From positions 1 to 39,084 of the forward strand of contig JAGYOG010000025.1 of NCBI GenBank assembly GCA_018399495.1: a stretch of DNA of 39,084 nt. Direction: 5' to 3'. The notes under the pieces were generated by a model, which saw nothing but the letters and a program-made list of their open reading frames with translations, made no database searches and was not told where the DNA came from. Below are positions 11,780-38,403 of this stretch, piece by piece (within the stretch, counting starts at the first letter, position 1; each line of letters begins with the position of its first letter). This DNA comes from Sphaerochaeta sp. (GTDB lineage Bacteria; Spirochaetota; Spirochaetia; Sphaerochaetales; Sphaerochaetaceae). The position numbers were made by a program, and so were the translations under genes.

Positions 11780-11798
11780 GATGAGGAGTCATATACAA

Positions 11799-17894: not shown

Positions 17895-17939
17895 GTACAT
17901 ACATACATTTAGATACATTAGAGAATGAAGGAACCAACC

Positions 17940-18893: not shown

Positions 18894-18906
18894 TCAGGAG
18901 CACAAA

Positions 18907-20360: not shown

Positions 20361-20362
20361 CA

Positions 20363-21124: not shown

Positions 21125-21125
21125 T

Positions 21126-21734: not shown

Positions 21735-21745
21735 GGGAGAATATC

Positions 21746-22405
21746 ATGGACAGTAAAGCATTTTGTCACCTCATCGATCATACCTTACTCAAGCCTGAGG
21801 CAACCAGAGAACAGATAGAACAACTGTGCAGGGAAGCAATCGAGTATGAGTTTGCCACCGTCGCAATTGAACCAGTCTACATCCCCTATGCAGCAAGTCT
21901 CTTGAAGGGGAGTAAGACGGGAATCACCAGTGCAATAGCCTACCCTCATGGCTCATGGTCTATTAAAGCGAAGTGCCATGAAATTGAGCTTTGCCTGAGA
22001 GCGGGTGCCAGCGATTGTGACTATGTCCTCGATTTGGGTGCTCTTAAAGAAGGAAACTGGGATCAAATCAGAAAGGAAGCACGGGAGTGCAGGAAAGCTA
22101 CCGGTTCAGCCATTTTAAAGATAATCCTCGAAGTATCTCTCCTTACCGATGAAGAGATTCGTACTGCTTCCCTCATCAGCGCCGAGGAGGGGGCAGATTT
22201 CATAAAAACGGCTACCGGCTATCTATCCTCCCCTACCATGGAACAAGTTGCCATCATGGCTAGGGCAGTCTCAGGCACCGCAACAAACGTCAAGGCAGCT
22301 GGTGGGTTCTCTTCTATGAAACGGGTACAGCAAGCTTTGGATTTGGGAGTAAAACGCATCGGAACCAGTTCTGCTTTCAAACTCCTGAAAGAATTTGAAT
22401 CATAA
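21746..22405 (+). CDS. deoC: Deoxyribose-phosphate aldolase family protein
   Basis: 219 residues. Start IDHTLLKPEATREQIEQLC, then ITSAIAYPHGSWSIKAKCHE, DCDYVLDLGALKEGNW, the Schiff-base region GADFIKTATGYLSSPTM (Lys ~residue 154) and the second lysine in NVKAAGGFSSMKRV. All catalytic positions of the DeoC fold are present. The classical reaction cleaves deoxyribose-5-phosphate to acetaldehyde and glyceraldehyde-3-phosphate. Lactaldehyde-forming relatives acting on deoxy-ketose phosphates share this pattern, and the operon context (lactonase, isomerase) makes a non-nucleoside substrate plausible. GGGAG precedes the ATG. Confidence 0.88.
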   Translation: MDSKAFCHLIDHTLLKPEATREQIEQLCREAIEYEFATVAIEPVYIPYAASLLKGSKTGITSAIAYPHGSWSIKAKCHEIELCLRAGASDCDYVLDLGALKEGNWDQIRKEARECRKATGSAILKIILEVSLLTDEEIRTASLISAEEGADFIKTATGYLSSPTMEQVAIMARAVSGTATNVKAAGGFSSMKRVQQALDLGVKRIGTSSAFKLLKEFES

Positions 22406-22426
22406 TCGGACCTACAAGGAATGAAC

Positions 22427-24688: not shown

Positions 24689-25648
24689 TCAACCTACACA
24701 ATAGTCACACACATGGCCTTCCAGTATATCGATAAGATTCTGGGAGGCCATAAGACTCATATTGCTTGACGCTTCATAGGTAGCTGCTCCTGCATGTGGA
24801 GTAAGGATACAGGAAGGCAGGGATGCAAGCGGTCCAGTCTCGGGATGTTCCTGGGAGCTTACATCCAAGGCAGCAGCACCAATCTGTCCACTCTCAAGAG
24901 CAACAGCCAATGCTTCTTCATCTATAATTCCCCCTCGCGCAGTATTGACCAACACCGCTCGTGGTTTCATGCTGGCAAATGCTTCTGCATTAAATAAGTT
25001 CTTTGTCTCTTCAGTCAAAGGCGTATGGATGGAGATGAAGTCACTCGTGCTTGCCAAAGTGGCGAAATCTACATACATAGCCCCGTAGTGTTGCTTCAGT
25101 TCCTCATTCTCATAGACATCATGGCAGAGAACCTTCATCTCAAAACCCTTGCAACGCTTGACCACACCAGCCCCGATCCTTCCTGTTCCGATAACCCCCA
25201 GGGTCTTTCTCCACATTTCCACACCAATGGGACGTTTTGATTCACCCCTTTTCATCTGATAATCCATATAGGGAACATGCCTGGCAGCTGAGAGCATCAG
25301 AGTGACTGCCAAATCGGACACAGAGTCCCCATTTGCTCCCGGGGTTATGGTCACCTTGATATCCCGCTCTCTTGCATAATCAAGATCAATTGCATCATAC
25401 CCGACCCCATAGCGAGAGATTACTTTCAGTTTCTTCGCTTTGCTGAGCAGTGCTTTGTCATATGATTCCAGTCCTGCAATTATCCCGTCAGCGTTTGCTA
25501 TCTGATCATGCAGCTGGTCTGTGACACTTTCTGTCTCTGTTGCTTTTATATGTCGGACTTTACATCCGTGGGTACGCAACAGCTCCCAGGCTTTCTCATC
25601 TGAACTCCCAAACGAACGGGCGGTTATCAATACAAGGAATGAGTTCAT
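24689..25648 (-). CDS. D-2-hydroxyacid dehydrogenase (phosphoglycerate dehydrogenase-like)
   Basis: 319 residues. N-terminal substrate half (ADGIIAGLESYDKALLSKAKKLKVISRYGVGYDAID), NAD Rossmann motif LGVIGTGRIGAGVVKR (~residue 150), catalytic Arg in VLVNTARGGIIDEEAL, Glu in SSQEHPE and His in TPHAGAATYEA. It is short, without the ACT domain of biosynthetic SerA, so a catabolic 2-hydroxy- or 2-keto-acid reductase is likely. AAGGAG lies upstream of 25648. It follows the FGGY kinase by 19 bases on the same strand: a two-gene unit for a sugar acid or deoxy sugar, substrate not known. Confidence 0.85.
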   Translation of the reverse strand: MNSFLVLITARSFGSSDEKAWELLRTHGCKVRHIKATETESVTDQLHDQIANADGIIAGLESYDKALLSKAKKLKVISRYGVGYDAIDLDYARERDIKVTITPGANGDSVSDLAVTLMLSAARHVPYMDYQMKRGESKRPIGVEMWRKTLGVIGTGRIGAGVVKRCKGFEMKVLCHDVYENEELKQHYGAMYVDFATLASTSDFISIHTPLTEETKNLFNAEAFASMKPRAVLVNTARGGIIDEEALAVALESGQIGAAALDVSSQEHPETGPLASLPSCILTPHAGAATYEASSNMSLMASQNLIDILEGHVCDYCVG

Positions 25649-25667
25649 AGAATGCTCCTTTCTCGTT

Positions 25668-27059
25668 TTATATCTTTCTTTTTGTTTTTTCATACCAATA
25701 TCGGTATTTTTTAAAATGTCTAGTATAGTATTCTCTGATTTCTGGTTCTGGATTCAGTACATTGGGCTTGTTTTGCAAAGGGCCTGGTATTTCTTCATGG
25801 GCAGAACGAGCGGCCAGTATAAGTGCACCATAGAGGGAAGTCTGATCCTGAAAATCCTCTTGCATAGGCACGCCAAAATAGTTGCAGCACAACTGTTTCC
25901 AGAAAGAAGAGTGCAATACACCACCTGAGAGCCTGATGCCTTCAGGTATGTACCCACTTCCCAGAAGTTCCACATAACACTGATAGAGATTGGCAACGAC
26001 ACCTTCCAAAACCCCTTGGTAGAACGTGTGGGTTGTCATGCAAGCTTCCACCTCATGGAAACTTGCAAGACGGGTGTCATCCCATCCTGGACAACGCTCT
26101 CCCACCAGGAAAGGAAGGAATAGTGGAGTCCGTGAGCCTTCAATCAGTGAATCTTCAATCTGAGCATATGTAACATCTGGATTAAAGGCGTGTTCCTTGT
26201 ACCAATCTACACAGTTGGAACAACCACTAGTGGCTGCTCCGAGCAGGAACCCATTATCCACACTACGATATAGCCATGTAGCATGGGTAGACGAAAACCA
26301 AGGTTCTGGGATGACCATTCTCATTGCTCCACTGGTACCCAAGGAGAGCGTCATGACCCCAGGTTTCTCTGCTCTTGATCCGACTTGATTCAATGCACCA
26401 TCGGGGAGAGGAGGAAGAACAGAAATACCTTCGCGTAGTCCCAGCACTCTTGCTCCTTCGGCTGTGAGTGTACTGCAGTCATTCCAAGTACAGATAGGGC
26501 CAACCTTGCAATCCAAGGCTTTAGCCATAGGATGCAGATCAATCGAAGAGGTGGAGAGAAGCCCCATGCCACTAAGCATGGAAGCTGTTTCCTTGACGGT
26601 ACCAGTAAGAAGATAGTGGAGGTAGCCAGCGAGAGAACCGATTTGTCGACCTGTTAGAGCAATCCCCTCTTTCTTCTGTTTCAAGAGCTTGAAGAAGGGA
26701 TATAGTGCGTGCACCATTGCACCACTTTCCCTATAGTACTCCTCAACAAAAGAGGGGTCCTCCCTAAGCTCTCTACAGAAGGCACGTCCAGAGACATCCG
26801 TCCAGTCGGTGAGTGGTTGAATGGGTACATTGGATGCATCGCAAACCACCAGGCTATGCCATGTCCCCGCGGTGGTTATACGGTCAACTGTTCTACCTTC
26901 GGCTACACGTTTCCCCAGCTGTATGACATGCCTACACAGCAACTCTGCATCGCTCGAGGAGGGATTTCTCTCCACAAGCAATGTCGATTCGCCCGTTATG
27001 GTATCGAGGTATTGAGCTTTCGAGGATGAGGTGCTGATTTCAAGGGCAAGTAGCTTCAT
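25668..27059 (-). CDS. FGGY-family carbohydrate kinase, divergent
   Basis: 463 residues from the ATG at 27059, which has GGAG upstream; the longer frame to 27134 lacks a site. FGGY fold: N-terminal domain LLALEISTSSSKAQYLD (usual first Asp is Glu here), TTAGTWHSLVV, PLTDWTDVSGRAFCREL, catalytic Asp in VLPPLPDGALNQVGS, second domain TLSLGTSGAMRMV, PFLVGERCPGWDD and IRLSGGVLHSSFWKQL. It resembles gluconokinase/fuculokinase-like subgroups. It is divergent from fucU, with the shared spacer carrying a palindrome and a promoter, so the phosphorylated sugar may be one handled by the FucU mutarotase. Glu for Asp in the phosphate-binding motif is conservative but notable. Confidence 0.82.
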   Translation of the reverse strand: MKLLALEISTSSSKAQYLDTITGESTLLVERNPSSSDAELLCRHVIQLGKRVAEGRTVDRITTAGTWHSLVVCDASNVPIQPLTDWTDVSGRAFCRELREDPSFVEEYYRESGAMVHALYPFFKLLKQKKEGIALTGRQIGSLAGYLHYLLTGTVKETASMLSGMGLLSTSSIDLHPMAKALDCKVGPICTWNDCSTLTAEGARVLGLREGISVLPPLPDGALNQVGSRAEKPGVMTLSLGTSGAMRMVIPEPWFSSTHATWLYRSVDNGFLLGAATSGCSNCVDWYKEHAFNPDVTYAQIEDSLIEGSRTPLFLPFLVGERCPGWDDTRLASFHEVEACMTTHTFYQGVLEGVVANLYQCYVELLGSGYIPEGIRLSGGVLHSSFWKQLCCNYFGVPMQEDFQDQTSLYGALILAARSAHEEIPGPLQNKPNVLNPEPEIREYYTRHFKKYRYWYEKTKRKI

Positions 27060-27213: not shown

Positions 27214-27645
27214 ATGTTGATTGGAATTTCCCCTTACATTGGTCCAGAACTACTGGAAGCACTCGATAGAATGGGTCATGGTGATGAGATTGTCATCGTC
27301 GACGCATTCTATCCTGGAGACACCCGATCCTCCCGCTGTATCAGAGCTGATGGAATCAAGGCAGAAGACCTACTGGATGGCATCTTCCGTCTGATGAATC
27401 CTGATGATTATGTCAAAGATCCGGTAGTGATGATGCAACCTTCTGAAGGCGATAGCGCAGATCCTGCAGTGGAGGCGTCATTCCAGGCTGTCTTGGACAA
27501 GTACTGGCCTGATATACCAAAAATCCAAAAGATCGAACGCCAGGAGTTCTATGACAGAGCAAAACGGGCGTATGCTGTAGTGGTTTCTGGTTCCATCGTA
27601 AAATATGGATGTATCATCATCCGTAAGGGTGTACTGCCCCATTAA
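27214..27645 (+). CDS. fucU: FucU/RbsD-family sugar mutarotase
   Basis: 143 residues. Strong FucU pattern: MLIGISPYIGPELLEALDRMGHGDEIVIVDAFYP (catalytic His in MGHGDE), then IRADGIKAEDLLDGI, DPVVMMQPSEGDS and the C-terminal FYDRAKRAYAVVVSGSIVKYGCIIIRKGV with the conserved Y/R/K pattern. It interconverts sugar anomers (fucose, or ribose-type pyranose/furanose) in the cytosol after uptake. AAGGAG lies 7 bases upstream. Monocistronic, with its own promoter and terminator, between two sugar-kinase operons, so it may serve either. Confidence 0.9.
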   Translation: MLIGISPYIGPELLEALDRMGHGDEIVIVDAFYPGDTRSSRCIRADGIKAEDLLDGIFRLMNPDDYVKDPVVMMQPSEGDSADPAVEASFQAVLDKYWPDIPKIQKIERQEFYDRAKRAYAVVVSGSIVKYGCIIIRKGVLPH

Positions 27646-27687: not shown

Positions 27688-28722
27688 CTAGTCAATGAGT
27701 ATCACCGGCTTGATAACCTGCTCCTCCTTATTTCCAAATACTGCAAATGCCGCATCTAGCTCATCCATGGTAAATCGATGCGTCAGCAAGAGAGAACTGG
27801 GAATATGGCCCTGCTTCAACAGCTCAAAGGCTTGGGGGAATCCCCAGTTGGGGATGGCATGAGAGGCGATAAGACGCTTCTTGGAGAAATGGAAATCATT
27901 TGCTGAAAATGTTACCTGATCATGTTTGAAATCGATACCGTCGTAGACTATCGACCCACAGAATCCGGCGAGCTCAATACCATCATCAAGCGTTGCAGGA
28001 GGAGAGGTGACAATCACCCGGTTAAACAGCTTGGGAAACTGTTGCTTAATCGCATCCTTCCACCCCGCCTTAGCACTATCAATGACCAAGTCGGCTCCAA
28101 GCTTCTTAGCAACCTCGGCTCGATATGCTCCCCGGGGAGTATCGAGATGATGCCCTACCATGACCACATTTCGTGCACCGCGTAACTTGGCAAGCTTGAT
28201 ACAGCTCAAACCGATGATTCCCGGTCCCATGATCAGTACATCATCAAAAAGTTCTACAGCGGCCTCCCGGCTGAGATCAAGGGCAACAGTAATAGGCTCA
28301 GCTAGGGTAGCTTCAGGATAGTCGAGTCCTTCGTAGGGAATCACCATCTCCCGGGGGACTACCAAAAACTGCCCCATTCCTGCCTGATCATCCATGTAAC
28401 TGTAGATATTTTCACAGGCTTGCGGCTTTTGATTCAGACACTGACTACATCTTCCGCAGGCAATATTGTTTTCAACCACCACCGAATCTCCGACCTTCAA
28501 ACCAGGAAAATCTGATCCTACTTCGTGGATATACCCGGCAACTTCATGACCAAGCGGGGTCAAGGTTCCTGTGGGAAGATCCTTGACAAAGTGGATATCA
28601 GTCCCACAAATTCCACACGCCTTAATACGCACCACAACCTCATTTGCTTTTGGTTTGAGTAGTGTTTTCTTCACAATTTTGATTTGTTCATTTCTATCGA
28701 CCCAGGCGCTTGTAAATTCCAT
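27688..28722 (-). CDS. Zinc-dependent polyol (sorbitol/xylitol-type) dehydrogenase
   Basis: 344 residues. Catalytic zinc site KACGICGTDIHF and LGHEVAG; structural zinc Cys4 in NNIACGRCSQCLNQKPQAC; Rossmann motif VLIMGPGIIGLSCIKLAKLRGA (~residue 172). MDR family, polyol or sugar-1-phosphate oxidation with NAD. The ATG at 28722 follows GAGGAG. It is the last gene of the ten-gene operon, 8 bases after the cupin gene. With the ABC importer and two xylulokinase-like genes, the simplest reading is oxidation of a pentitol to a ketopentose before phosphorylation; this is inference. Confidence 0.85.
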   Translation of the reverse strand: MEFTSAWVDRNEQIKIVKKTLLKPKANEVVVRIKACGICGTDIHFVKDLPTGTLTPLGHEVAGYIHEVGSDFPGLKVGDSVVVENNIACGRCSQCLNQKPQACENIYSYMDDQAGMGQFLVVPREMVIPYEGLDYPEATLAEPITVALDLSREAAVELFDDVLIMGPGIIGLSCIKLAKLRGARNVVMVGHHLDTPRGAYRAEVAKKLGADLVIDSAKAGWKDAIKQQFPKLFNRVIVTSPPATLDDGIELAGFCGSIVYDGIDFKHDQVTFSANDFHFSKKRLIASHAIPNWGFPQAFELLKQGHIPSSLLLTHRFTMDELDAAFAVFGNKEEQVIKPVILID

Positions 28723-28730
28723 TTCACTCC

Positions 28731-29081
28731 TCACTTCAAAAAATCTTCACTTCCCGATGGAATGACACAGAGGAAGACCAAATCTTCTTCCAGTGAGTCA
28801 TTCAACCACTGATGCTCATCTCCTCCGGGAACGAATACCGACGTACCTGGAAGCAGAACCTTTTCTTCCTTGGGTCCAACCACTCTACCTTTCCCTTGCA
28901 GGACATACACGACATGCTCATGTTCGTGGCTCCCGTTGCTGCTTTTTCCGCCAAGAGGAATCCTAATCTCCCGCATCTCAAAATGGCTTGACCCATCTTC
29001 CTTGCTTACCAACCATCGAACCTTGTTTCCCGATCCTGTAGTACTTAATATTGCTTCTGCTGCTGTTCTTGTTACAATCAT
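28731..29081 (-). CDS. Small cupin protein in the polyol operon
   Basis: 116 residues, a single cupin barrel. Metal ligands in GSHEHEHVVYVLQGKG (His-x-His and downstream Glu/His) and DEHQWLN; two-strand motif PGTSVFVPGGDEHQW. No catalytic residues beyond the metal site are recognisable. It could be a sugar isomerase/epimerase accessory or sensor. The start at 29081 overlaps the ribokinase stop (ATGA), and GGGAG lies upstream; the longer frame to 29096 is not needed. Tightly co-translated with both neighbours. Confidence 0.78.
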   Translation of the reverse strand: MIVTRTAAEAILSTTGSGNKVRWLVSKEDGSSHFEMREIRIPLGGKSSNGSHEHEHVVYVLQGKGRVVGPKEEKVLLPGTSVFVPGGDEHQWLNDSLEEDLVFLCVIPSGSEDFLK

Positions 29082-30040
29082 TTCACACACTCCCAATAGT
29101 TTTTTTTATCCAAAGATGAAAGGAACATCTGTACTTCGTTATAAGTAGGCATTGCAGGAGCCGTACCAACCTTGGTTACCGAAAGAGAAGCAACGGCTGT
29201 TGCAAAATAGATTGCCTGTTTCAAATCCTCGCCCTTGCTGAGTGCTGTTGCCAACCCCCCGTTGAATGCATCCCCTGCACCAGTGGTATCAACAACCTTT
29301 ACATCCATGGTGGGAAACATTAAGGCTTCCTTCTCTGCAGTAAGAAGAAAACAACCCATTTTCCCCATGGTGATGATGACATCTTTGACTCCCTTGGATT
29401 GCAAGGCCAATGCTGCGTTGTATGCAGTCTGACGATCTACAACATCGACACCGGTCAAGCAAGAAGCCTCAGTCTCATTTGGTGTTACCAAATCAAACAT
29501 GCCAATAAACTCATCATCCAAAGGCTCAACAGGAGCTGGAGCTGGATTGAGCAAGGAAATCCCACCGGCAGCATGCACCCGAGCTACCGCTGGAGGAAGG
29601 ATATCAAGGTTGGTCTCCAGCTGAGCAACCAGGACATTGGTATCATCCAATATGGTATCGATTGACCGTATCTCCTCCTGACTGATCGCACCACAAGCTC
29701 CAGGGACAACCGTGATACTGTTCTGGGAGGTATGTTCATCCACCATGATCAATGCAATACCTGTTGCCAGTTCAGGATCTTCGAATACATACCGGCTATC
29801 CATCTTTTCATCGGCATAGAAATCCTTGGCGACCTTTCCAAACACATCGTTTCCCACTTTTGTGACCAGTACCACATCTCCACCACAGCGGTGAGCTGCT
29901 ACGGCCTGGTTGGAACCCTTTCCTCCGGGGCCCATCTTGAAAATGGTTCCCTTCACTGTCTCTCCCTGTACGGGAATATGGGGGGACCGTGCCATGAGAT
30001 CAACTACAAAACTACCAATTACTGTGACACGTTCTGCCAT
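29078..30040 (-). CDS. Ribokinase-like PfkB sugar kinase
   Basis: 320 residues. RVTVIGSFVVDLMARSPHIP start, GPGGKGSNQAVAAHRCGGDVVLVTKVG (sugar-binding Gly motif), VVPGACGAIS, LLNPAPA, LVTPNETEASCLTG, and the catalytic loop VDTTGAGDAFNGGLATAL (GAGD, Asp base). All ribokinase hallmarks are intact. Probable reaction: ATP-dependent 5-phosphorylation of ribose or a similar pentose. GGGAG precedes the ATG. Coexistence with two xylulokinase-like kinases in one operon implies more than one phosphorylation step or substrate. Confidence 0.9.
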   Translation of the reverse strand: MAERVTVIGSFVVDLMARSPHIPVQGETVKGTIFKMGPGGKGSNQAVAAHRCGGDVVLVTKVGNDVFGKVAKDFYADEKMDSRYVFEDPELATGIALIMVDEHTSQNSITVVPGACGAISQEEIRSIDTILDDTNVLVAQLETNLDILPPAVARVHAAGGISLLNPAPAPVEPLDDEFIGMFDLVTPNETEASCLTGVDVVDRQTAYNAALALQSKGVKDVIITMGKMGCFLLTAEKEALMFPTMDVKVVDTTGAGDAFNGGLATALSKGEDLKQAIYFATAVASLSVTKVGTAPAMPTYNEVQMFLSSLDKKNYWECVK

Positions 30041-30043
30041 GTA

Positions 30044-31045
30044 CTACTCCCTTGTATAGCGTTCGATAAAGCTATAAGGCGATGGTTTCCCAATGGAACT
30101 GACATCGTTCAATCGTTTCATCTGATCATCACTCAACAACCAAGACAGTGAGTCAAGGTTCTCCCTGAGCTGGCTGACAGTGCGAGCTCCTATAAGAGGA
30201 ATGATACCCGCTGGATTTTGCCTAACCCAGTTTATACTTACCTGCGATACACTGCACCTAACTTCCTCAGCGATCTCATACAAGACCTCAATGATGTCAA
30301 ACGCCTGTTCGCTTCCACGTTGTTCAGCCTGGTCATCCCATCGGTCCTGCCTTCCTGCACGGCTGTTTCGGGGGATGTCCTTCCCCCTTCGGTATTTTCC
30401 ACTGAGCCAACCACCGGCCAAGGGGGACCATGCAAGCATCCCTACCCCTTCTTTCTCGCACATAGGTATCAGTTCCCACTCAGGACTACGCACCAGCAGG
30501 CTGTACTCCAACTGCAGGCTTACGAAAGGCTCCTTCTGGGTATAGCGAGCAATCATAAGGTTTTTCATCAAATCTGATGGGGTGTAGTTGGATGCACCGA
30601 GGTAGCGGACCTTACCAGCTGAGACAAGATCATCCAGGGTTCTCAAGGTCTCCTCAAAGGGAGTCCTTTTGTCCAAACAATGAATCTGTAGTAAATCGAT
30701 ATATTCTGTATTGAGTCGTCTAAGACTAGTTTCCACACTGTTTAGGATATGTTTACGACTTGCACCGGTATCATTAACGTTCTCAGTAGTTGGAAAGAAC
30801 ACCTTGGTGCCTAGGATCAAATCATCCCTCCTAGAACCAATATCCTTAATCCAGGACCCCAGGATTCTTTCAGAATCTCCGTTGTTGTAGGAATCAGCAG
30901 TATCGAGGTAGTTTCCACCTGCTTGGAAGTATTCCTCTAGCAATACCTTCGATTCCTTTTCCTCAATATTCCAACCAAAGGTTTGCGTACCAAGAGCAAT
31001 GGCACTCATACGCAGTCCCGTATTTCCGAAATAACGATACTCCAT
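30044..31045 (-). CDS. Aldo/keto reductase
   Basis: 333 residues, (beta/alpha)8 NADPH-dependent reductase. Catalytic tetrad visible: Asp and Tyr in LDTADSYNNGDSE (~residues 51-56), Lys in LILGTKVFFP and His in IDLLQIHCLDKRTP. Cofactor part: GMLAWSPLAGGWLSGKY and IPLIGARTVSQLRENL. The group resembles YajO/potassium-channel-beta-like AKRs acting on aldoses and small aldehydes. GGAGG lies 4-8 bases before the ATG, with two bases between it and the small unknown gene upstream. It could reduce an aldose to a polyol or act in reverse with the dehydrogenase. Confidence 0.9.
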   Translation of the reverse strand: MEYRYFGNTGLRMSAIALGTQTFGWNIEEKESKVLLEEYFQAGGNYLDTADSYNNGDSERILGSWIKDIGSRRDDLILGTKVFFPTTENVNDTGASRKHILNSVETSLRRLNTEYIDLLQIHCLDKRTPFEETLRTLDDLVSAGKVRYLGASNYTPSDLMKNLMIARYTQKEPFVSLQLEYSLLVRSPEWELIPMCEKEGVGMLAWSPLAGGWLSGKYRRGKDIPRNSRAGRQDRWDDQAEQRGSEQAFDIIEVLYEIAEEVRCSVSQVSINWVRQNPAGIIPLIGARTVSQLRENLDSLSWLLSDDQMKRLNDVSSIGKPSPYSFIERYTRE

Positions 31046-31047
31046 AC

Positions 31048-31437
31048 CTACCTCCGCAACAACAAGGCCCGCATATCCTCATCTTCTACTACGTACCAGT
31101 TCCGGGAAAAACATTGTGGGGGATGGATGTCATCTGAATCTGGAGCTGTAAATATCTCATGATGGATATGAGGCTTCCAAAGCGAGAGAATATGATGATG
31201 AAACTCATCCGCATGTGAGTACCATTCCTCCCAGAACAAATAATCTTGGTCATCCTTTTCTGGGATCGCATTCACAACTAAAAACCCATGATTCTCTTTC
31301 ACAATCCATGTATGTTTTCGGTACGGATTCTCTTTGAGTTCATTAATACCAGGAAACATATCTTCCAGTTTGAAGCCGAAACGCTTCATGGCCTCTGTGA
31401 CGTTAGCTTGTTGTAATTGTAATAGTAGTTCACTCAT
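31048..31437 (-). CDS. Small histidine-rich protein of unknown family
   Basis: 129 residues; I do not recognise the family. Visible features: N-terminal helix MSELLLQLQQANVTEAMKRF, a central aromatic/acidic part (WIVKENHGFLVVNAIPEKDD, LFWEEWYSHADEFHHHIL) and SLWKPHIHHEIF, so about eight histidines in 40 residues, plausible metal ligands. No signal peptide or membrane segment. The start is set at ATG 31437 because AAGGAGGG lies 6 bases upstream; TTG at 31443 is too close. It lies between an FGGY kinase (2-base gap to its stop) and the aldo/keto reductase, in a translationally packed operon, so a catalytic or accessory role in the same pathway is expected. Confidence 0.8.
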   Translation of the reverse strand: MSELLLQLQQANVTEAMKRFGFKLEDMFPGINELKENPYRKHTWIVKENHGFLVVNAIPEKDDQDYLFWEEWYSHADEFHHHILSLWKPHIHHEIFTAPDSDDIHPPQCFSRNWYVVEDEDMRALLLRR

Positions 31438-31439
31438 AC

Positions 31440-32978
31440 TCAACCCTCCTTTGTATTGGTAAATTGGTCGAGATTCTGATAGAAATCGACCAAACTTGTA
31501 TAGGCTTGTTCATATAGGGGTAGATAGCGATCGTAAAATTCAACATTTGCTTCGTTTGGAAGTATGCGTCGCTCGTAATGGAGTAGCTCCTTCACCACGT
31601 CAGCACTCTCGTACATCCCTATTCCCAAGCCTCCGATTACTGCCGCCCCAAAGTTTTTGCTGTCCTTGAGATGGTTATGTGATACCACTGGAATATTGAA
31701 GGCATCGGCAATGATATGCTTGTTGATGTCACTATTGGCTTGTCCTCCAATCACCACCAATTCTGTTGCTTTGTTTATGGGTTTGAGAGCTTCCCAAATA
31801 ATCTTAAGATTCATTGCCACGCCCTCATAACAAGCGCGGAACATATCAGAGCGACGTGTGTTTCGTTTAAGACCGATGAAGGCACCACGAGCCTGGGGAT
31901 CCCAGTAGGGGCTACGCTCACCCATAAGATAGGGAAGGAACAGCAATCCATTTGCCCCAGGGGGCGATTGGGTGACCAGCATTTCGATCAAATGCTGTGG
32001 ATAGCTGCGTTGCAATGCCGCTTGGGAGACTTCTTCCCTTGCCAGTTCATCCTTCAGCCAATCCAGAGAAGCCCCAGCTGCTTGCATGGTACCACACGGG
32101 GCAATCTGATCAGGCTGAATGAATGACCAATTGAAGGTTCGCATCTTTGGCTCCCAATACGGAGACTGCTTGACCATCCCGATCCATGCTGATGACCCAA
32201 AGTAGAGATACGCATCATCCTCAGTGGTACAACCTCCACCCAAGGAGGCACATATACCATCCCCTGCCCCGATGACAACCGGGGTGCCTGGAAGCAACCC
32301 TGTTGCAACGGACGCATCCATGGTTACATAGCCTGCAATTTCGGTAGACGGAATAGCCTCAGGGAGTATTTTTGGATTGATCCCGATAATGCTTGTCAAG
32401 GTACGGGACCACTGTCGCTTTGTAAGATTAAACAGGTTTGTTCCCGATGCATCAGAGTAATCGGTAACAATTTTATCCGTAAGTTTATAAACGATATAAT
32501 CCTTCGCTTGGACTACTTTAGTGGTCTTGGCAAAGACGTCTGGACGATGATGCATGATCCAAAGCAGTTTACTCAAGGTATAGGAAGCACTGATCCTATG
32601 GCCTGTAATATGGAAAAAGAGTTTCTCATCAATCTGGTTCAACAATTGCATCGATTCCTTGTCTGAACGCATATCTGCCCAAATGATTGCATTACCAATT
32701 GGGTCTCCTGCCTTGTCGAGACAGAGGCATCCCATCATCTGTCCACTAAAGGTAACCACAGCAATTGATTTCTCGTTGATACCCCGCATAACCTTCTTTG
32801 TGGACTCGCAGACAGCACACCACCAATCACTAGGGTCTTGTTCTACTTTATTACCCTCTTGATAGATGACCCTGTAAAGAGAAAGCCAGGAACTGATGAT
32901 ATTTCCCTTTTCATCATACACTACCGCTTTGTCCCCAGTTGTTCCCAGATTATGCGATAGGATGAGTCTGTCATACAT
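31440..32978 (-). CDS. Xylulokinase-like FGGY kinase, second copy (Asn in DxGT motif)
   Basis: 512 residues. FGGY layout with FSGQMMGCLCLDKAG, GHRISASYTLSKLLWIMHHRPDVF, SDASGTNLFNL, catalytic Asp in IGAGDGICASLGGG, FGSSAWIG and LLFLPYLMGERSPYWDPQARGAF (FGGY signature region). The N-terminal phosphate/Mg motif, usually DLGT, reads HNLGTTGDK: the first Asp is Asn. This may weaken or abolish kinase activity or change its role. It is paralogous to the next gene upstream across its whole length. AAGGGG lies 6 bases before the ATG. Ketopentose phosphorylation is the family function. Confidence 0.85.
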   Translation of the reverse strand: MYDRLILSHNLGTTGDKAVVYDEKGNIISSWLSLYRVIYQEGNKVEQDPSDWWCAVCESTKKVMRGINEKSIAVVTFSGQMMGCLCLDKAGDPIGNAIIWADMRSDKESMQLLNQIDEKLFFHITGHRISASYTLSKLLWIMHHRPDVFAKTTKVVQAKDYIVYKLTDKIVTDYSDASGTNLFNLTKRQWSRTLTSIIGINPKILPEAIPSTEIAGYVTMDASVATGLLPGTPVVIGAGDGICASLGGGCTTEDDAYLYFGSSAWIGMVKQSPYWEPKMRTFNWSFIQPDQIAPCGTMQAAGASLDWLKDELAREEVSQAALQRSYPQHLIEMLVTQSPPGANGLLFLPYLMGERSPYWDPQARGAFIGLKRNTRRSDMFRACYEGVAMNLKIIWEALKPINKATELVVIGGQANSDINKHIIADAFNIPVVSHNHLKDSKNFGAAVIGGLGIGMYESADVVKELLHYERRILPNEANVEFYDRYLPLYEQAYTSLVDFYQNLDQFTNTKEG

Positions 32979-32999
32979 TGTTGGCCCCTTTCTCTTCCA

Positions 33000-34484
33000 T
33001 TACCGATTGAACCAAGGTTCAAGACTGCGATACAGATCAGCGAATCGTTCTGTCAACTCTTCATAGAATGCAGAGTTATTCCTATTTGGCTTTACGACTT
33101 CCTTGATGGGATTCATGTTTTCGATTATGGAAAAGTCCTCATACAAGCCACAGCCCACTCCTCCAAGCAAGGCTGCTCCCATGCTTGTCGCCTCAGTGAG
33201 AAACTGGGGCACAACAATCTCACAACCAAAAACATCGGCCAGTACCTGTCGGAGGAAGGTATTCAAGGCACCTCCTCCTATGAACATCACCCTGCGGTCA
33301 GGAATCTCAGATAACATTCCTGCAAAGTTGAGTTTCTGGTTCATCGCCACTCCCTCGAGTAGGGCTCGGCAGTGATCAGGGAAGGTTGTTGAGACATCCA
33401 TACCCACAAAAGCCCCTTTCGCCTTGGTATTCCACCAAGGAGATCGTTCTCCCATTAGGTAGGGAAGGAAGAATAAACCATTTGCCCCAGGCTGGGACTC
33501 CTTGGCTAAATCATTGATAGTATCAAGTGTCTTGCCCTTGTCGTCACCCATGTAGGTCTTTGCAAACCAAGAAAAAGATCCACCAGCTGTCTGCATCGTT
33601 GCACATGGTTGATACAAACCAGCAACGGGATGTGCCCAAGTAAAACCAATCTTTTTAGGATCAGAAAGATGATTCTTACTTGCAATAGATACCCAGGAAG
33701 AAGACCCCATATAGATGTAAGGTTTTCCGAAGGCCACTGATCCAGCACCAAGACTGGCACAGCCCCCATCTCCGGCTCCCACGATAACAGGGGTTCCTTC
33801 AGGAATACCGGTCTCTTCACTGGCTCGTTGATGTACCTCTCCAATCTTGGTTGATGAGGGGTAAGCTTTAGGGAACAAGGAAGAGGGAACCCCCATTGCA
33901 TTGAGAATTACATCTGACCAGTTTAACGAAGCAAGATCAAAGGCATTGGTTCCTGAAGCATCATTATAATCGGTTGCATACTCTCCGGTGAGCAAGAAAT
34001 TCATATAATCCTTTGCCTGGAGTACTTTGTATGTTTTTTCATAGACTTCGGGACGATGCTTCTTGATCCACAGGAGTTTGGTGAGAGAGTAGGAAGCACT
34101 GGGCCTATGACCGGTTATCTGATAAATCCGGTCAAACCCAAGAGCCTGGATGAACTCCTGCTCTTCTTCCGTACTCCGTTGGTCGCAATACAACAAGGCA
34201 TTGTGCAAAGGTTTTCCTTTTTTATCCACCGGCAGACAAGCCATCATCTGCCCGCTGAAGGAAACTGCTGCAACATCCTTGGGGTTGATTGTTGAAAGCA
34301 CTTCCCTGGAAGAAGAACAAACAGCATTCCACCAGATGGATGGGTCTTGTTCAGCCCAATTGGAATTAAACACCTCCATCTGATAGGGAGTCACTCTACT
34401 TCCTATCAATACTCCCTTTTCATCAAATAGTGTTGCTTTATTCCCTGAAGTACCCAGATCATGTGCCAAGACATATCGCTTCAT
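33000..34484 (-). CDS. Xylulokinase-like FGGY kinase, first copy
   Basis: 494 residues. All key motifs present: HDLGTSGNKATLFDE (intact Asp), FSGQMMACLPVDKKGKPLHN, GHRPSASYSLTKLLWIKKH, NDASGTNAFDL, VIVGAGDGGCASLGAG (catalytic Asp), MGSSSWVS, FFLPYLMGERSPWWNTKAKGAF and FIGGGALNTFLRQVLADVFG for nucleotide binding. Expected reaction: ATP-dependent phosphorylation of D-xylulose or a related ketose. ATG at 34484 is preferred because AAAGGGG is well spaced; ATG at 34490 abuts it. It follows the permease gene by 26 bases. It and its downstream paralogue look like a tandem duplication. Confidence 0.88.
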   Translation of the reverse strand: MKRYVLAHDLGTSGNKATLFDEKGVLIGSRVTPYQMEVFNSNWAEQDPSIWWNAVCSSSREVLSTINPKDVAAVSFSGQMMACLPVDKKGKPLHNALLYCDQRSTEEEQEFIQALGFDRIYQITGHRPSASYSLTKLLWIKKHRPEVYEKTYKVLQAKDYMNFLLTGEYATDYNDASGTNAFDLASLNWSDVILNAMGVPSSLFPKAYPSSTKIGEVHQRASEETGIPEGTPVIVGAGDGGCASLGAGSVAFGKPYIYMGSSSWVSIASKNHLSDPKKIGFTWAHPVAGLYQPCATMQTAGGSFSWFAKTYMGDDKGKTLDTINDLAKESQPGANGLFFLPYLMGERSPWWNTKAKGAFVGMDVSTTFPDHCRALLEGVAMNQKLNFAGMLSEIPDRRVMFIGGGALNTFLRQVLADVFGCEIVVPQFLTEATSMGAALLGGVGCGLYEDFSIIENMNPIKEVVKPNRNNSAFYEELTERFADLYRSLEPWFNR

Positions 34485-34510
34485 AACCATCCCCTTTCTA
34501 TAATTATATA

Positions 34511-35464
34511 CTAGTTCTTCTTCGTCTTTCTTATTTGGTCATACCAAACAGAAGCTACAATCAGGACACCAACAATGATCTGCAAGATAAAGGAATTGAT
34601 GCCAAGCAAGTTTCCTCCATTTTGAATAAGAGAAATCAACAAGGCACCCAACACAGTACCGATGACGGTTCCAGAACCACCACTCAAACTGGCTCCACCG
34701 ACAACTGCAGATGCGATGGCATCCATCTCATACCCTTGTCCAGCGGTAGGAATACCATTGGCAAGACGACTGGTCATCAGAATACCGGCAATACCACTAA
34801 GCAATCCACTCATAGCATAGACACTCACTGTTACTTTTGCGGTATTGATTCCGGAGAGTCTTGCTGCCTCAATGTTGCTTCCATAAGCAAAGATATTTCG
34901 TCCAAAAATGGTTTTTGTGGTCAGCACAAAGGTGACAAGAATGACCAAAAACCAGACAAAGAACAGAGAGGGAAATCCCAAGAACACCAACTGTGCAAAA
35001 CCGGTAAAAACCTTCGGAAGCCCCGCGACCATACGAGCATTGGAAAGCAACATAACAATACCACGGGCTGCCTGCATCATTCCCAAGGTGGCTATAAACG
35101 GTGGGACCTTGCCATAGTGGATAATCAGTCCATTAAGGGTGCCCAACAGTACACAAACAAGCAATGCGATAATTATAGCGGGGAATACTCCCATGCCTGC
35201 TACCAAAAGCTTAGCAACTACAATACTGGCAACACCAACAACGGAGCCAACTGAAAGGTCTATTCCACCCGAGATGATAACAAAGGTCATTCCCAGAGCA
35301 ATAATGCCGTTGACCGAGGTTTGCCGAACCAGATTTCTTAAATTATTGACAGTGAAAAAATTCTTTGTTGCGAACGAAAGGATCACCATCAATACGATTA
35401 CAATTACTATCAGGTTGCCTTCAGCGATCCTGAATTTAGTATTTTTCTTTGAAAACAATTTCAT
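34511..35464 (-). CDS. Ribose-type ABC transporter permease
   Basis: 317 residues, about eight to ten transmembrane helices in the inner membrane. BPD_transp_2 family: VNGIIALGMTFVIISGGIDLSVGSVVG, GLIIHYGKVPPFIATLGMMQAARG, and the EAA-like coupling region NIFAYGSNIEAARLSGINTAKVTV, then MDAIASAVVGGASLSGGSGTVIGTVLGALL. It carries sugar with the ATPase and binding protein encoded just upstream. AAGGAG lies 6 bases before ATG 35464, and the gene begins 21 bases after the ATPase stop. Confidence 0.93.
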   Translation of the reverse strand: MKLFSKKNTKFRIAEGNLIVIVIVLMVILSFATKNFFTVNNLRNLVRQTSVNGIIALGMTFVIISGGIDLSVGSVVGVASIVVAKLLVAGMGVFPAIIIALLVCVLLGTLNGLIIHYGKVPPFIATLGMMQAARGIVMLLSNARMVAGLPKVFTGFAQLVFLGFPSLFFVWFLVILVTFVLTTKTIFGRNIFAYGSNIEAARLSGINTAKVTVSVYAMSGLLSGIAGILMTSRLANGIPTAGQGYEMDAIASAVVGGASLSGGSGTVIGTVLGALLISLIQNGGNLLGINSFILQIIVGVLIVASVWYDQIRKTKKN

Positions 35465-35485
35465 CTTTATCTCCTTGCTTTCCAA

Positions 35486-36976
35486 TCACAAGCCTGATGC
35501 GTATCTCAGCAAGGTTTCCTCACTGAATGCTTCTCGTTCAACAATGTTCGGCATTGACCCCTCATGCAAAACACCAATTCTATCAGCAAGTCCCATAATC
35601 TCGGGAAGGTATGAGGAAATCAAAATGACTGCATGTCCTTCCTTCGTCAATTGTTCGATCAACTTGTAGATCTCTTGTTTTGCCCCGACATCAATTCCAA
35701 CAGTGGGTTCATCGAAAATGAACAGTTTGCTTTCGCAGCAGAGCCACTTAGCAATGATTACCTTCTGCTGGTTTCCTCCTGAGAGGTTGCCCACCAGCTG
35801 ATGAATGGAAGGAGTCTTTACCTTCAACTGGTTCACATATTCAACTGAACGCTGTCTCTCTCTCTTCTCCAATACAAAATTGAATTTTGAGATTGCCTTA
35901 TATGATGCCAGATTTATGTTGTGATTGATGGACTGAGTCAAGGCCAAACCTTGATGTTTTCGGTCCTCTGGCAACAGTCCAATTCCCAGGGAGATGGCCT
36001 TGGAAGGATGATTGATCACTTCCTTTTTTCCCTTAAAATACACAGTTCCGCTCTCGATGGAATCTGCTCCGTAAATTGCCCTGACTACCTCGGTTCTTCC
36101 CGAGCCAACGAGGCCGAACAACCCAAAAATCTCTCCTCTCTTCACGGAGAAGGAAATGTTTTTCAGAGCCTTTCCTCGATTCAGATCCTCAACACGCAAC
36201 AACTCTTCCCCTTTGGGGTAGTGTTCAATGTTGTACATATCAGTGAGGGAACGTCCAACCATATAGGAAATCAATTGATCTTCGTTTGTTTCTTTAACCG
36301 GAAGTGTTTTGACATGCTGGCCGTCCTTGAGCACAGTAACACGGTCTGAAACGGTAAAGATTTCTTCGAGACGGTGTGATATGTAAATAACCGAGATACC
36401 GGAAGCCTTCAGCTTCTTGATTATCTCAAACAATATTTCTACTTCTTCATTGCTCAACAAGGCAGTCGGCTCATCAAAGATGACCAGCTTCGATTTCTTG
36501 TGAACTGTTTTTGCGATAGCGACCATTTCCTGCATTGCAGGAGAAAGTTCGGTAATGCGTAGCCGAGGATCGACATCCACATTTAAGGCTTTCAAGGTCT
36601 CTGCAGTCTTGGAATACACATGATTCCAATCAATCATTCCATTCTTCTTTCTGGGAAACTGTCCCATAAAGAAGTTCTCCCCGATCGAAAGGTCAGCAGC
36701 AAGCGTCAAGTCCTGATATACAGCTGCCAAGTCCAATCGGTCCGCTTCAATAACATTCGGTATGGTGACCTGCTCTCCATTCAGAGTAATCGTCCCCTCG
36801 TCCTCTTGGTAGACGCCCATGATAATCTTGATGATAGTGGACTTACCCGCTCCATTTTCCCCTACCAAGGCATGCACCTCACCGGGATAAACGGTTAAAT
36901 CCACATTGTCAAGTGCCTTAACTCCAGGAAACTGCTTGGATATTCCCTTCAATTCCAAGAATGGTCTTGTCTCCAT
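35486..36976 (-). CDS. Ribose-type ABC transporter ATPase, tandem domains
   Basis: 496 residues with two nucleotide-binding domains. First: Walker A GENGAGKST (~residue 40), degenerate signature LSPAMQEMVAIAK, Walker B LVIFDEPTA. Second: degenerate Walker A GLVGSGRTEVVR as in RbsA-type proteins, signature LSGGNQQKVIIAKWL, Walker B LFIFDEPTVGID. It powers uptake with the permease. The start at 36976 has GGAGG 6 bases upstream; an upstream in-frame extension to 37030 has no such site. The 86-base gap to the binding protein contains a stable hairpin. Confidence 0.93.
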   Translation of the reverse strand: METRPFLELKGISKQFPGVKALDNVDLTVYPGEVHALVGENGAGKSTIIKIIMGVYQEDEGTITLNGEQVTIPNVIEADRLDLAAVYQDLTLAADLSIGENFFMGQFPRKKNGMIDWNHVYSKTAETLKALNVDVDPRLRITELSPAMQEMVAIAKTVHKKSKLVIFDEPTALLSNEEVEILFEIIKKLKASGISVIYISHRLEEIFTVSDRVTVLKDGQHVKTLPVKETNEDQLISYMVGRSLTDMYNIEHYPKGEELLRVEDLNRGKALKNISFSVKRGEIFGLFGLVGSGRTEVVRAIYGADSIESGTVYFKGKKEVINHPSKAISLGIGLLPEDRKHQGLALTQSINHNINLASYKAISKFNFVLEKRERQRSVEYVNQLKVKTPSIHQLVGNLSGGNQQKVIIAKWLCCESKLFIFDEPTVGIDVGAKQEIYKLIEQLTKEGHAVILISSYLPEIMGLADRIGVLHEGSMPNIVEREAFSEETLLRYASGL

Positions 36977-37009
36977 TCTGGACCTCCTTCCTTTTATACA
37001 GCTAAACGT

Positions 37010-37044
37010 GTCTCCAGCTCCTCCTATCAAAAGGAGCCAGAGAC
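37010..37044 (-). other. Intercistronic stem-loop between binding protein and ATPase genes
   Basis: Outer GTCTC / GAGAC and inner GCTC / GAGC arms around a small loop, in the only sizeable gap of the operon, with no T run after it. Such hairpins commonly protect the upstream binding-protein mRNA and lower ATPase/permease expression. This is inference from position. Confidence 0.5.
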
Positions 37045-37062
37045 TTCAGTTCAGAGAGACAA

Positions 37063-38076
37063 TCAATACTTTTTCATTGTGAACGGATCAAGAATACCCT
37101 GTACTTCTGGATCGTTGACATTGTGCTTTTCAACAACAACTACACCAGTGTCGACATATTCTGGAAGGGTTGCACCTTCGATAGCCTTCACTGCAAAATC
37201 GACGCCCTTGTAACCCATACCATATGGATCCTGGACCATGAGAGCCTTGATAACGCCACTCTTGATTGCTGCGACTTCTTCTGGATCGCTGTCATAAGCA
37301 GTAATGATAATCTTGTCTTTCAGACCCTGCTCTGTAATTGCACGAGCTACACCGTCTGCAGATTGGTTATTGTCTGCAAAGATTGCAATCAAGTCATCAC
37401 CATACGTGGTAATCAAATCCTCAGTTGTGGAGAGAGACTTGATAATGTCATTATCCACATATCTGGTAGGAATTACCTCGATGCCAGGAAGCAATTCATT
37501 GATGCGGGTGAGAAATCCATTGTCACGATCGGTCAATACCTGGACACCAGCCATTGCACTCACTACAGCAATTTTCTTTCCAGCGGTAGAGATGTTGTTT
37601 TTCTTCAGATACTCAACCATCTTCTCTGCAGCAAGTGAACCACCAAGCGTGTTATCGGTAGCCAAGAAGGTGTGCACCTTGTCAGTGTTCACCCTGTTGT
37701 CAACGGTAACAATCTTGATTCCCTTGTCATAAGCCTGTTCAAGAGCTGGTACAGATGCATCTGAACTGGTGGAAGAAATGACAATAGCATCGGGATTGGT
37801 CGAAATGACATTCTCAAGAATGACAATCTGCTGGTCGATATCTGATTCAGAGGGTGGGCCGTAGGTCGTTACGTTGACCAAATCAGGATGTTCAAACTCA
37901 TAGTTTAAAACACCAACAAGCATATACTGCCAGAAATCAGAATCAGTAGCCTTGATGATTACAGCAATCTCGTAGGGTTTTTCGCCCTTCGGACCTGCTG
38001 CTTCTTGTGCACCTTGTGCAAACAAGCCGGACATTACAATTGTGACCAAAAGTATGGCACATAGCACTTTTTTCAT
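37063..38076 (-). CDS. Periplasmic sugar-binding protein, ribose type
   Basis: 337 residues. Signal peptide MKKVLCAILLVTIVMSGLFAQ with cleavage near AQG and no lipobox cysteine. Two Rossmann-like lobes of the PBP1/peripla_BP_4 family: EIAVIIKATDSDFWQYMLVGVLN, DAIVISSTSSDASVPALEQAYDKGIKIVTVDNRV (ligand Asn/Asp/Arg), ATDNTLGGSLAAEKMVEYL, AIFADNNQSADGVARAI and ITAYDSDPEEVAAIKSG. It binds a monosaccharide or polyol in the periplasm and delivers it to the permease. AGGAGG at 38084-38089. First gene of the operon, 33 bases after the predicted sigma-54 +1. Confidence 0.93.
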   Translation of the reverse strand: MKKVLCAILLVTIVMSGLFAQGAQEAAGPKGEKPYEIAVIIKATDSDFWQYMLVGVLNYEFEHPDLVNVTTYGPPSESDIDQQIVILENVISTNPDAIVISSTSSDASVPALEQAYDKGIKIVTVDNRVNTDKVHTFLATDNTLGGSLAAEKMVEYLKKNNISTAGKKIAVVSAMAGVQVLTDRDNGFLTRINELLPGIEVIPTRYVDNDIIKSLSTTEDLITTYGDDLIAIFADNNQSADGVARAITEQGLKDKIIITAYDSDPEEVAAIKSGVIKALMVQDPYGMGYKGVDFAVKAIEGATLPEYVDTGVVVVEKHNVNDPEVQGILDPFTMKKY

Positions 38077-38118
38077 TTTTTTTCCTCCTAATGTTGAAAA
38101 AAACTGTTACAAAGTATA

Positions 38119-38136
38119 TTGCATAAATTGTGCCAA
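38119..38136 (-). promoter_or_regulatory. Sigma-54 promoter (-24/-12) of the ten-gene operon
   Basis: On the minus strand: TTGGCACAATTTATGCAA, with GG and GC separated by exactly 10 bases, a close match to TGGCAC-N5-TTGC. The GG is at 38134-38133, the GC at 38122-38121, so +1 lies near 38109, leaving a 33-base leader with AGGAGG before the binding-protein ATG. No good sigma-70 pair is seen close by. Confidence 0.8.
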
Positions 38137-38403
38137 TTATCAAAATTTTGTTTAGTTAATTTGATTATTTTGTTACATTATAGTATTATATAAATATTTT
38201 GTACTATTTTTTTATCGCTTTTAGCATAGGTTAAGAAAGAATTGCAATCAGTATCTATGTGCATATTTTGTACATGTTCTAAATTTATTAAACACTTTAT
38301 ACACAAAACCCATTCTTTTTAGACACACCAAAAGAAGAGAATTATGTCCAATTCTGTAACATTACACATGCCAGTAGCTTTTTTTTATTATAGTGCTCAT
38401 TAC
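38137..38403. promoter_or_regulatory. AT-rich upstream region with repeated TATTTTGT(T)AC
   Basis: No gene in about 270 bases. ATATTTTGTAC occurs at 38194-38204 and 38263-38273, and TATTTTGTTAC at 38167-38177. The second full copy runs into the palindrome ACATGT. Spacing 30-140 bases upstream of the -24 element suits enhancer sites for the sigma-54 activator; AT-rich DNA also favours bending. Function is inferred. Confidence 0.4.

What the first reader, a model, noticed from the sequence alone, without database searches (positions are those of the whole stretch)
27688..38136. Ten-gene sugar/polyol operon under a sigma-54 promoter
Ten minus-strand genes with gaps of 0-86 bases begin with a near-perfect -24/-12 element (TTGGCAC, then ATGC, GG-N10-GC). 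Ribose-type ABC sugar operons are usually sigma-70 controlled. The combination of importer, two FGGY kinases, ribokinase, AKR, MDR dehydrogenase, cupin and an unknown protein is not a pathway I recognise. A sigma-54 activator is encoded in the same window.
Basis: partly seen in the sequence, partly recalled or inferred. Interest (0 to 1): 0.72.

Follow-up and report, generated by a model that had tools for sequence, protein, structure and literature searches.

The report
Sugar operon switched by sigma-54
A ten-gene set for importing and breaking down a still unidentified sugar in a Sphaerochaeta-like bacterium carries a conserved switch of the rare sigma-54 type, and its probable activator gene lies nearby and travels with it between species.

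Summary
Ten minus-strand genes (27688-38076) follow TTGGCAC-N5-ATGC at 38136-38121, the best-scoring sigma-54 site of the window. The genome encodes RpoN with all three Pfam domains. The element is conserved in ten genomes of three spirochaete genera and two families, while most flanking DNA diverges. The activator at 22421-24409 is very probably the cognate one: its orthologues and those of the operon's binding protein occur in the same 9 of 139 family genomes. In G077 and G483 the activator gene sits directly upstream of the binding-protein gene, with the element between them. A TGT-N11-ACA palindrome at 38274-38258 is a probable activator site, but weak by pattern alone. The operon encodes a CUT2 importer, two FGGY kinases, a ribokinase-type kinase, AKR, MDR, cupin and an orphan 131-aa protein. 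The sugar is unknown; 'polyol' is not shown. One kinase (FGGY2) has Asn for the phosphate-loop Asp in 9 of 9 sequences, so it may be a poor or non-catalytic kinase. Textbook regulation, unusual target: a new variant of a known kind.

The parts
38258..38274 (-). candidate upstream activating sequence (UAS), TGT-N11-ACA palindrome TGTACAAAATATGCACA; first base 138 nt before the -24 element
   Evidence: TGT-N11-ACA at -137/-138 in 8 of 8 genus genomes, -134 in G077, -98 in G483; weak by pattern alone (in the four regions tested, 108-292 of 2000 shuffles contain one); motif class and distance as in PMC6615313 section 6
38121..38136 (-). -24/-12 sigma-54 promoter element TTGGCACAATTTATGC; predicted start near 38109 (inferred)
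37063..38076 (-). CUT2-type sugar-binding protein (Peripla_BP_4)
35486..36976 (-). tandem ABC ATPase of the importer (ATG at 36976; longer ORF to 37030)
34511..35464 (-). ABC permease (BPD_transp_2)
33000..34490 (-). FGGY1, xylulokinase-like kinase with the usual Asp (HDLGTSG)
31440..32978 (-). FGGY2, paralogue with Asn in place of the phosphate-loop Asp (HNLGTTG)
31048..31443 (-). 131-aa protein without a family match (u131)
30044..31045 (-). aldo/keto reductase
29078..30040 (-). ribokinase-family kinase (above the TIGR02152 cut-off)
28731..29081 (-). small cupin (Cupin_2)
27688..28734 (-). zinc-type MDR dehydrogenase
22421..24409 (+). probable cognate sigma-54 activator (enhancer-binding protein, EBP), similar to DhaR over nearly its full length; AAA+ domain 342-509, Fis-type HTH at the C-terminus
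18910..22405 (+). companion genes upstream of the activator: GPI-type cupin, UlaG-like hydrolase, GntR regulator, unknown 202 aa, deoC; GPI, UlaG and GntR also precede the activator in G077; not shown to be sigma-54 controlled
24689..27056 (-). 2-hydroxyacid dehydrogenase and a third, divergent FGGY kinase; conserved neighbours
27214..27645 (+). L-fucose mutarotase family protein (just above the NF011949 cut-off), convergent with the operon

Best explanation
The operon is transcribed by RNA polymerase carrying sigma-54 from the -24/-12 element at 38136-38121. It stays off until the activator encoded at 22421-24409 binds upstream (most likely at the TGT-N11-ACA palindrome 38274-38258, centred about 157 bp before the predicted start), receives a signal through its N-terminal half (probably the imported sugar, an intermediate, or an operon enzyme), hydrolyses ATP and opens the promoter. 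The ten products import a monosaccharide through a CUT2 ABC transporter and convert it, through AKR/MDR redox steps and FGGY and ribokinase-type kinases, to a sugar phosphate. Shown here: the anatomy, rpoN, conservation of the promoter, co-occurrence and adjacency of the activator. Inferred: that the promoter is used, that the activator binds the palindrome, the signal, and the identity of the sugar (a pentose or deoxyhexose is the best guess).
For: -24/-12 element in 10 of 10 genomes found with the operon; the 300-nt upstream shuffle test gave 0 of 2000 for eight and 1 of 2000 for G077 and for G483. rpoN with its three domains. Activator and binding protein occur in the same 9 of 139 family genomes and in G483 of another family. 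Activator gene directly upstream of the operon in G077 and G483. Three related binding-protein loci (L085-L087), with no match to the activator in the stretches held, have no such element in the sequence checked. Other sigma-54-like sites in this genome precede two PspA, two Hsp20 and an RpoS-like gene. Activators of sugar and fermentation operons with TGT-N10-12-ACA sites, mostly 100-250 bp upstream, are described in Clostridiales (PMC6615313).
Against: No RNA or binding data. Seven of the eight Sphaerochaeta-type promoters are close relatives, so there are only about four independent lineages. The palindrome is not significant by pattern alone, and similar palindromes are common in the genome (90 strand matches at up to 2 mismatches, reversed control 30; a palindrome can count on both strands). 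The Sphaerochaeta-type activators have GAFTSA where GAFTGA is usual (the usual motif recalled), so contact with sigma-54 is not certain to be normal. The HTH_8 match is just under Pfam's cut-off (21.7 against 22 bits). The activator has no equivalog assignment (DhaR model 395.9 bits, cut-off 551). In the phylum sample two genomes have a 42-44% binding protein without the activator and one a 36% activator without the binding protein, at the cut-offs used.
Confidence: 0.88

Rival explanations
1. The palindrome at 38274-38258 is the operator of a repressor (for example the GntR-type regulator encoded at 20363-21124, or a LacI/ROK-type one), and the activator binds elsewhere; the promoter is still sigma-54.
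For: Similar palindromes TGTTCAA-N3-TTGAACA occur elsewhere in the genome. A GntR gene lies in the activator's gene cluster in the window and in G077, where a second one follows the operon.
Against: TGT-N11-ACA recurs upstream of the promoter in ten genomes, at nearly the same distance in nine, and class and distance match published activator sites.
Confidence: 0.3
2. The promoter is sigma-54 dependent, but another of the genome's activators drives it.
For: Five strong PF00158 proteins, including the window's, are encoded in the genome, plus one weak match.
Against: Same 9 of 139 genomes as the window's activator; adjacency in G077 and G483.
Confidence: 0.06
3. The element is a look-alike, such as a LacI-type operator, inside a sigma-70 promoter (TTGATA-N19-TATACT in the window, seen by eye).
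For: AT-rich region; a TATACT lies just downstream of the element.
Against: TATACT is not conserved (for example TGTACT, TGTTCT, TATTCT, TATCTT, TGTAGT in relatives) while GG-N10-GC is; no minus-strand sigma-70 match at 16-18 spacing in the scan.
Confidence: 0.05
4. The operon is an ordinary ribose (rbs) operon.
For: The PfkB kinase passes the ribokinase cut-off (310.9 against 299.65) and the importer is ribose-type.
Against: Binding protein, ATPase and permease fall far below the RbsB, RbsA and RbsC cut-offs; two FGGY kinases, AKR and MDR have no known place in ribose use (the last point from general knowledge).
Confidence: 0.08

Closest known systems
Sigma-54/EBP regulons of sugar and fermentation genes in Clostridiales (PMC6615313; section 6 and search passages seen)
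   Same: Sigma-54 promoter, activator usually close to its target, TGT-N10-12-ACA sites mostly 100-250 bp upstream
   Different: Different phylum; sugar targets named in the passages seen are cellobiose, dihydroxyacetone and gfr systems (CelR, DhaQ, GfrR; that cel and gfr are PTS systems is recalled), while here it is a CUT2 ABC importer with FGGY kinases; 'ABC transporter' occurs 0 times in that main text
DhaR, activator of the dihydroxyacetone kinase operon (NF008485)
   Same: Similarity over residues 19-655 of 662
   Different: Score 395.9 below the cut-off 551; no dha gene among the neighbours examined; target is a sugar ABC operon
Ribose (rbs) operon with CUT2 importer
   Same: Importer architecture and ribokinase-family kinase
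   Different: Importer parts below the rbs equivalog cut-offs; extra kinases, reductases and the orphan u131; sigma-54 promoter
Xylulokinase XylB (TIGR01312)
   Same: FGGY1 379.7 and FGGY2 372.1 bits
   Different: Both under the cut-off 380.25; FGGY2 has Asn in place of Asp

Membership tests
sigma-54 dependent promoter | GG-N10-GC with TTGGCAC-N5-TTGC-like core at a plausible distance from the gene | tested here: met
   TTGGCACAATTTATGC, 60 nt before the ATG; element in 10 of 10 genomes
sigma-54 dependent promoter | rpoN in the same genome | tested here: met
   PF04552 E 1.1e-51; AID, CBD and DBD domains in one ORF
sigma-54 dependent promoter | cognate AAA+ activator | tested here: met
   PF00158 228 bits; co-occurrence and adjacency; that it acts here is inferred
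sigma-54 dependent promoter | upstream activator site | tested here: inconclusive
   TGT-N11-ACA at conserved distance, but found in 5-15% of shuffles of the four regions tested
sigma-54 dependent promoter | transcription lost without rpoN | not testable with these tools
   needs RNA
DhaR activators (NF008485) | score over the curated cut-off of 551 | tested here: not met
   395.9 bits
CUT2 (ribose-type) ABC importer | Peripla_BP_4 binding protein, ATPase with two ABC domains, BPD_transp_2 permease | tested here: met
   195.9 bits; two ABC_tran stretches; 147.8 bits
rbs ribose operon | RbsB, RbsA and RbsC equivalogs | tested here: not met
   87.8, 508.2 and 254.2 bits against 337, 745 and 398
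ribokinase (TIGR02152) | score over cut-off 299.65 | tested here: met
   310.9 bits; substrate not tested
xylulokinase XylB (TIGR01312) | score over cut-off 380.25 | tested here: not met
   FGGY1 379.7 (0.6 bits short), FGGY2 372.1
active FGGY kinase | Asp in the N-terminal phosphate loop (D-x-G-T; its role recalled) | tested here: not met
   applies to FGGY2: Asn in 9 of 9 sequences; of the 26 other FGGY_N loci read 24 have Asp and 2 Glu; FGGY1 meets it in 9 of 9

The most novel reading that the evidence does not exclude
FGGY2 is not a working kinase but a sugar- or nucleotide-sensing pseudokinase partner of the DhaR-like activator. In dihydroxyacetone metabolism the kinase subunits themselves switch DhaR on and off (recalled); here an FGGY paralogue with an invariant Asp-to-Asn change would do the same job, so that the pathway's own kinase pair reports its state to sigma-54.
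Probability: 0.12. Interest if true: 0.75.

Novelty: new variant of a known kind. Interest (0 to 1): 0.5.

Why it matters
It gives a conserved, self-contained sigma-54 sugar regulon (activator plus operon) in spirochaetes, on which the listings of my searches showed no paper (only those of 33 and 78 were complete, one paper each). The target is a CUT2 ABC/FGGY operon, whereas the sigma-54 carbohydrate targets stressed in the passages I saw are PTS systems (PMC12316311). The pairing tells an experimenter which activator to test, where it should bind, and which genes to assay for an unassigned sugar pathway, including one kinase with a suspicious active site.

Tried and rejected

Considered and rejected: sigma-70 promoter (not conserved); rbs operon; filing the activator as DhaR (below cut-off). 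Not resolved: repressor operator versus activator site for the palindrome.

Limits. In one search the ungapped comparison was anchored on TTGGCA, so those six columns are invariant by construction; TGC at 13-15 is not, and only 7 of the other 196 columns are invariant in all ten genomes. In that ungapped comparison the palindrome shows only 2 invariant columns of 25 in the genus, because its distance varies by one base and its letters vary. G109 and G110 are nearly identical here. Co-occurrence depends on the E-value cut-offs used (1e-60 and 1e-100). In the phylum sample two genomes (G226, G282) have 42-44% identical binding proteins without an activator match at 1e-120, and one (G206) has a 36% identical activator without a binding-protein match at 1e-80. 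In one search the upstream stretch of L086 was measured from residue 36 of the alignment, so less true upstream DNA was covered there; L085-L087 hold only about 1.5 kb on each side. The matrix was built on seven sites chosen by eye from 25 pattern matches (13 in the reversed control) as promoter-like; two further matches outside ORFs (L020, L039), the operon's own and those inside longer ORFs were left out. In one search only the 30 of 53 rows that had a locus were read. The chance test for the palindrome was run on four regions (window, G096, G077, G483), not ten.
Full report
What is in the sequence. The window is contig C18 (1-39084) of a 2.6 Mb draft genome. The nearest named records holding the operon are Sphaerochaeta sp. 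S2, a Sphaerochaetaceae MAG and a Spirochaetales MAG, so the host is a Sphaerochaeta-like spirochaete (inferred). Ten minus-strand genes run from 38076 to 27688 with spacings of -4 to 86 bases: CUT2 binding protein, tandem ATPase, permease, two xylulokinase-like FGGY kinases (FGGY1, FGGY2), an orphan 131-aa protein (u131), aldo/keto reductase, ribokinase-family kinase, cupin and MDR dehydrogenase. Among the NCBIfam hits shown, only the ribokinase-family protein passes a curated cut-off (lists cut at 25 for the ATPase and the ribokinase).

The promoter. TTGGCAC-AATTT-ATGC lies at 38136-38121, 60 nt before the first ATG. A whole-window count of loose matches is at chance (117 against 106.6), so the element had to be tested otherwise. 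I collected 25 matches to TGGCAC-N6-TGC in the genome (13 in the reversed control). Seven in promoter position, besides the operon's, precede an RpoS-like sigma factor, two Hsp20 genes, two PspA genes and two candidate small RNAs. A matrix from these seven gives the operon's site 19.9 bits, the best in the window. In the 300 nt before the first gene 0 of 2000 shuffles reach the observed score for each of the eight genus genomes, and 1 of 2000 for each of the two more distant ones.

Conservation. Orthologues of the binding protein occur in 9 of 139 genomes of the family (8 in the genus, and G077 of another genus) and in G483 of another family of the class. All ten have the element: TTGGCACAATTTATGC in seven, TTGGCACACTATTTGC in G096, TTGGCATGTTTCTTGC in G077, TTGGCATACAATTTGC in G483. 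The TATACT just downstream in the window is not conserved, and the scan finds no sigma-70-like site on that strand at 16-18 spacing. About four lineages are independent.

The activator. The gene at 22421-24409 encodes a sigma-54 activator with AAA+ domain (228 bits) and Fis-type HTH (21.7 bits, cut-off 22), similar to DhaR along nearly its whole length but under that model's cut-off (395.9 against 551). Its orthologues (E up to 1e-100) are in exactly the same 9 of 139 genomes as the binding protein. In the window and in G110, G113, G114 and G115 it lies about 14 kb from the operon's promoter; in G096, G108 and G109 it is on another contig of a draft assembly. In G077 it ends some 260-280 nt before the binding-protein gene, on the same strand. 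In G483 it is also directly upstream. In a sample of 392 genomes of the phylum, activator relatives at 1e-120 occur in four: G000, G077, G483 and G206. In G206 the next gene begins as a transketolase (45.3 bits on 82 residues), with ATGGCATGTAAATTGCAT between them. Three related binding-protein loci (L085-L087), with no activator match in the stretches held, lack the element in the DNA checked.

Upstream site. A TGT-N11-ACA palindrome lies at 38274-38258. The same spacing occurs 137-138 nt before the -24 element in 8 of 8 genus genomes, 134 in G077 and 98 in G483. Section 6 of PMC6615313 (read in full) describes TGT/ACA sites with 10-12 bp spacers, most UAS sites lying 100-250 bp upstream of sigma-54 promoters. 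By pattern alone the site is weak: in the four regions tested 108 to 292 of 2000 shuffles contain one. Similar palindromes are frequent in the genome (90 strand matches at up to 2 mismatches, 30 in the control), so a repressor operator remains possible.

What the operon does. The core shared with G077 and G483 is importer, FGGY1, FGGY2, AKR, ribokinase-type kinase and u131. MDR is also in G483; neither MDR nor the cupin was found in the G077 stretch at E 1e-15. FucU, a third divergent FGGY kinase and a 2-hydroxyacid dehydrogenase are conserved neighbours in the six other genus genomes whose contig reaches that far. The nearest solved binding proteins are 4rxt and 4wut, which I recall as D-arabinose and D-fucose complexes (not verified). 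Together with the fucose-mutarotase neighbour this points to a pentose or 6-deoxyhexose, but the substrate is open.

An odd kinase. FGGY2 has HNLGTTG where FGGY1 has HDLGTSG. Asn is present in 9 of 9 FGGY2 sequences and Asp in 9 of 9 FGGY1. Of 30 FGGY_N loci read out of 53 rows in four genomes, Asn occurs only in the 4 FGGY2; 24 others have Asp and 2 Glu. Four of the five nearest solved kinases cover the position in the printed alignments, and all four have Asp. From memory this Asp helps bind Mg-ATP in FGGY kinases, so FGGY2 may be slow, specialised or non-catalytic. Since DhaR is controlled by its kinase subunits (recalled), a regulatory role of FGGY2 is the boldest reading not excluded.

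Literature. Searches for sigma-54 with spirochaetes or Sphaerochaeta and for sigma-54 sugar operons showed nothing on this system in their listings, of which only those were complete. PMC12316311 (passages only) stresses PTS genes among sigma-54 carbohydrate targets. In PMC4641369 (term search only) sugar, ribose, xylose and ABC transport occur 0 times in the main text. The library lacks most subscription journals.

Verdict. 'Polyol' and the pathway remain unproven. The regulation is textbook; the target and the kinase pair are unusual.

Noticed in passing
L091:897-1260 (own genome C35:13396-13759); relatives L092-L111: Two tandem small-RNA candidates, each behind a sigma-54-like site: conserved start AGAACAGAGCAACA, U-run, anti-Shine-Dalgarno CCUCC, GGUGCCA terminator hairpin (three pairs with two-sided changes in 15 aligned copies of the second and third kinds; copies). 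Related DNA in 26 of 26 genus genomes, up to 5 matches in one; no Rfam match at gathering score. Reminiscent of multi-copy sigma-54 small RNAs such as Qrr (recalled). The one paper search listed five papers, none on it by title.
   Followed up: partly
L017:583-1467 (-), L011:1075-2436 (-): An RpoS-like sigma factor (293 bits to TIGR02394, cut-off 378.7) starts 48 nt from the TGGCAC of TTGGCACGTTAGTTGC; the site lies about 3.3 kb from the gene of a response-regulator-type sigma-54 activator with a histidine kinase next to it, receiver and kinase recognised by eye. Resembles the Borrelia sigma-54 to sigma-S cascade (abstract starts of PMC11109971 and PMC3037356 seen).
   Followed up: partly
L030, L032, L033, L036 (own genome): Two Hsp20 and two PspA genes (Pfam) have sigma-54-like sites whose TGGCAC begins 65-77 nt before the start codon.
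   Followed up: yes
window 22421-24409 and orthologues: The sigma-54 contact loop reads GAFTSA in 8 of 8 Sphaerochaeta-type activators, GAFTGA in G077 and G483.
   Followed up: partly
window 11754-13248 and 17925-19000: The 6-phosphogluconate dehydrogenase-like and shikimate dehydrogenase-like genes (recognised by eye) appear as several overlapping ORFs in different frames, so they look broken or mis-assembled.
   Followed up: no
L060 (G096 C53:28784-30751): The activator of G096 is reported with one TGA inside the match.
   Followed up: no
L065:10004-10390: A u131 relative (49-50%) in Candidatus Marispirochaeta lies beside a DeoR-type regulator and genes that look like acetoin/pyruvate-dehydrogenase and polyol-type dehydrogenases (by eye); no other tested window protein matches that locus with over 80 bits.
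   Followed up: partly
L144 (G206 C430): A 36% identical activator is followed by a sigma-54-like site and the start of a transketolase gene, cut by the contig end.
   Followed up: partly
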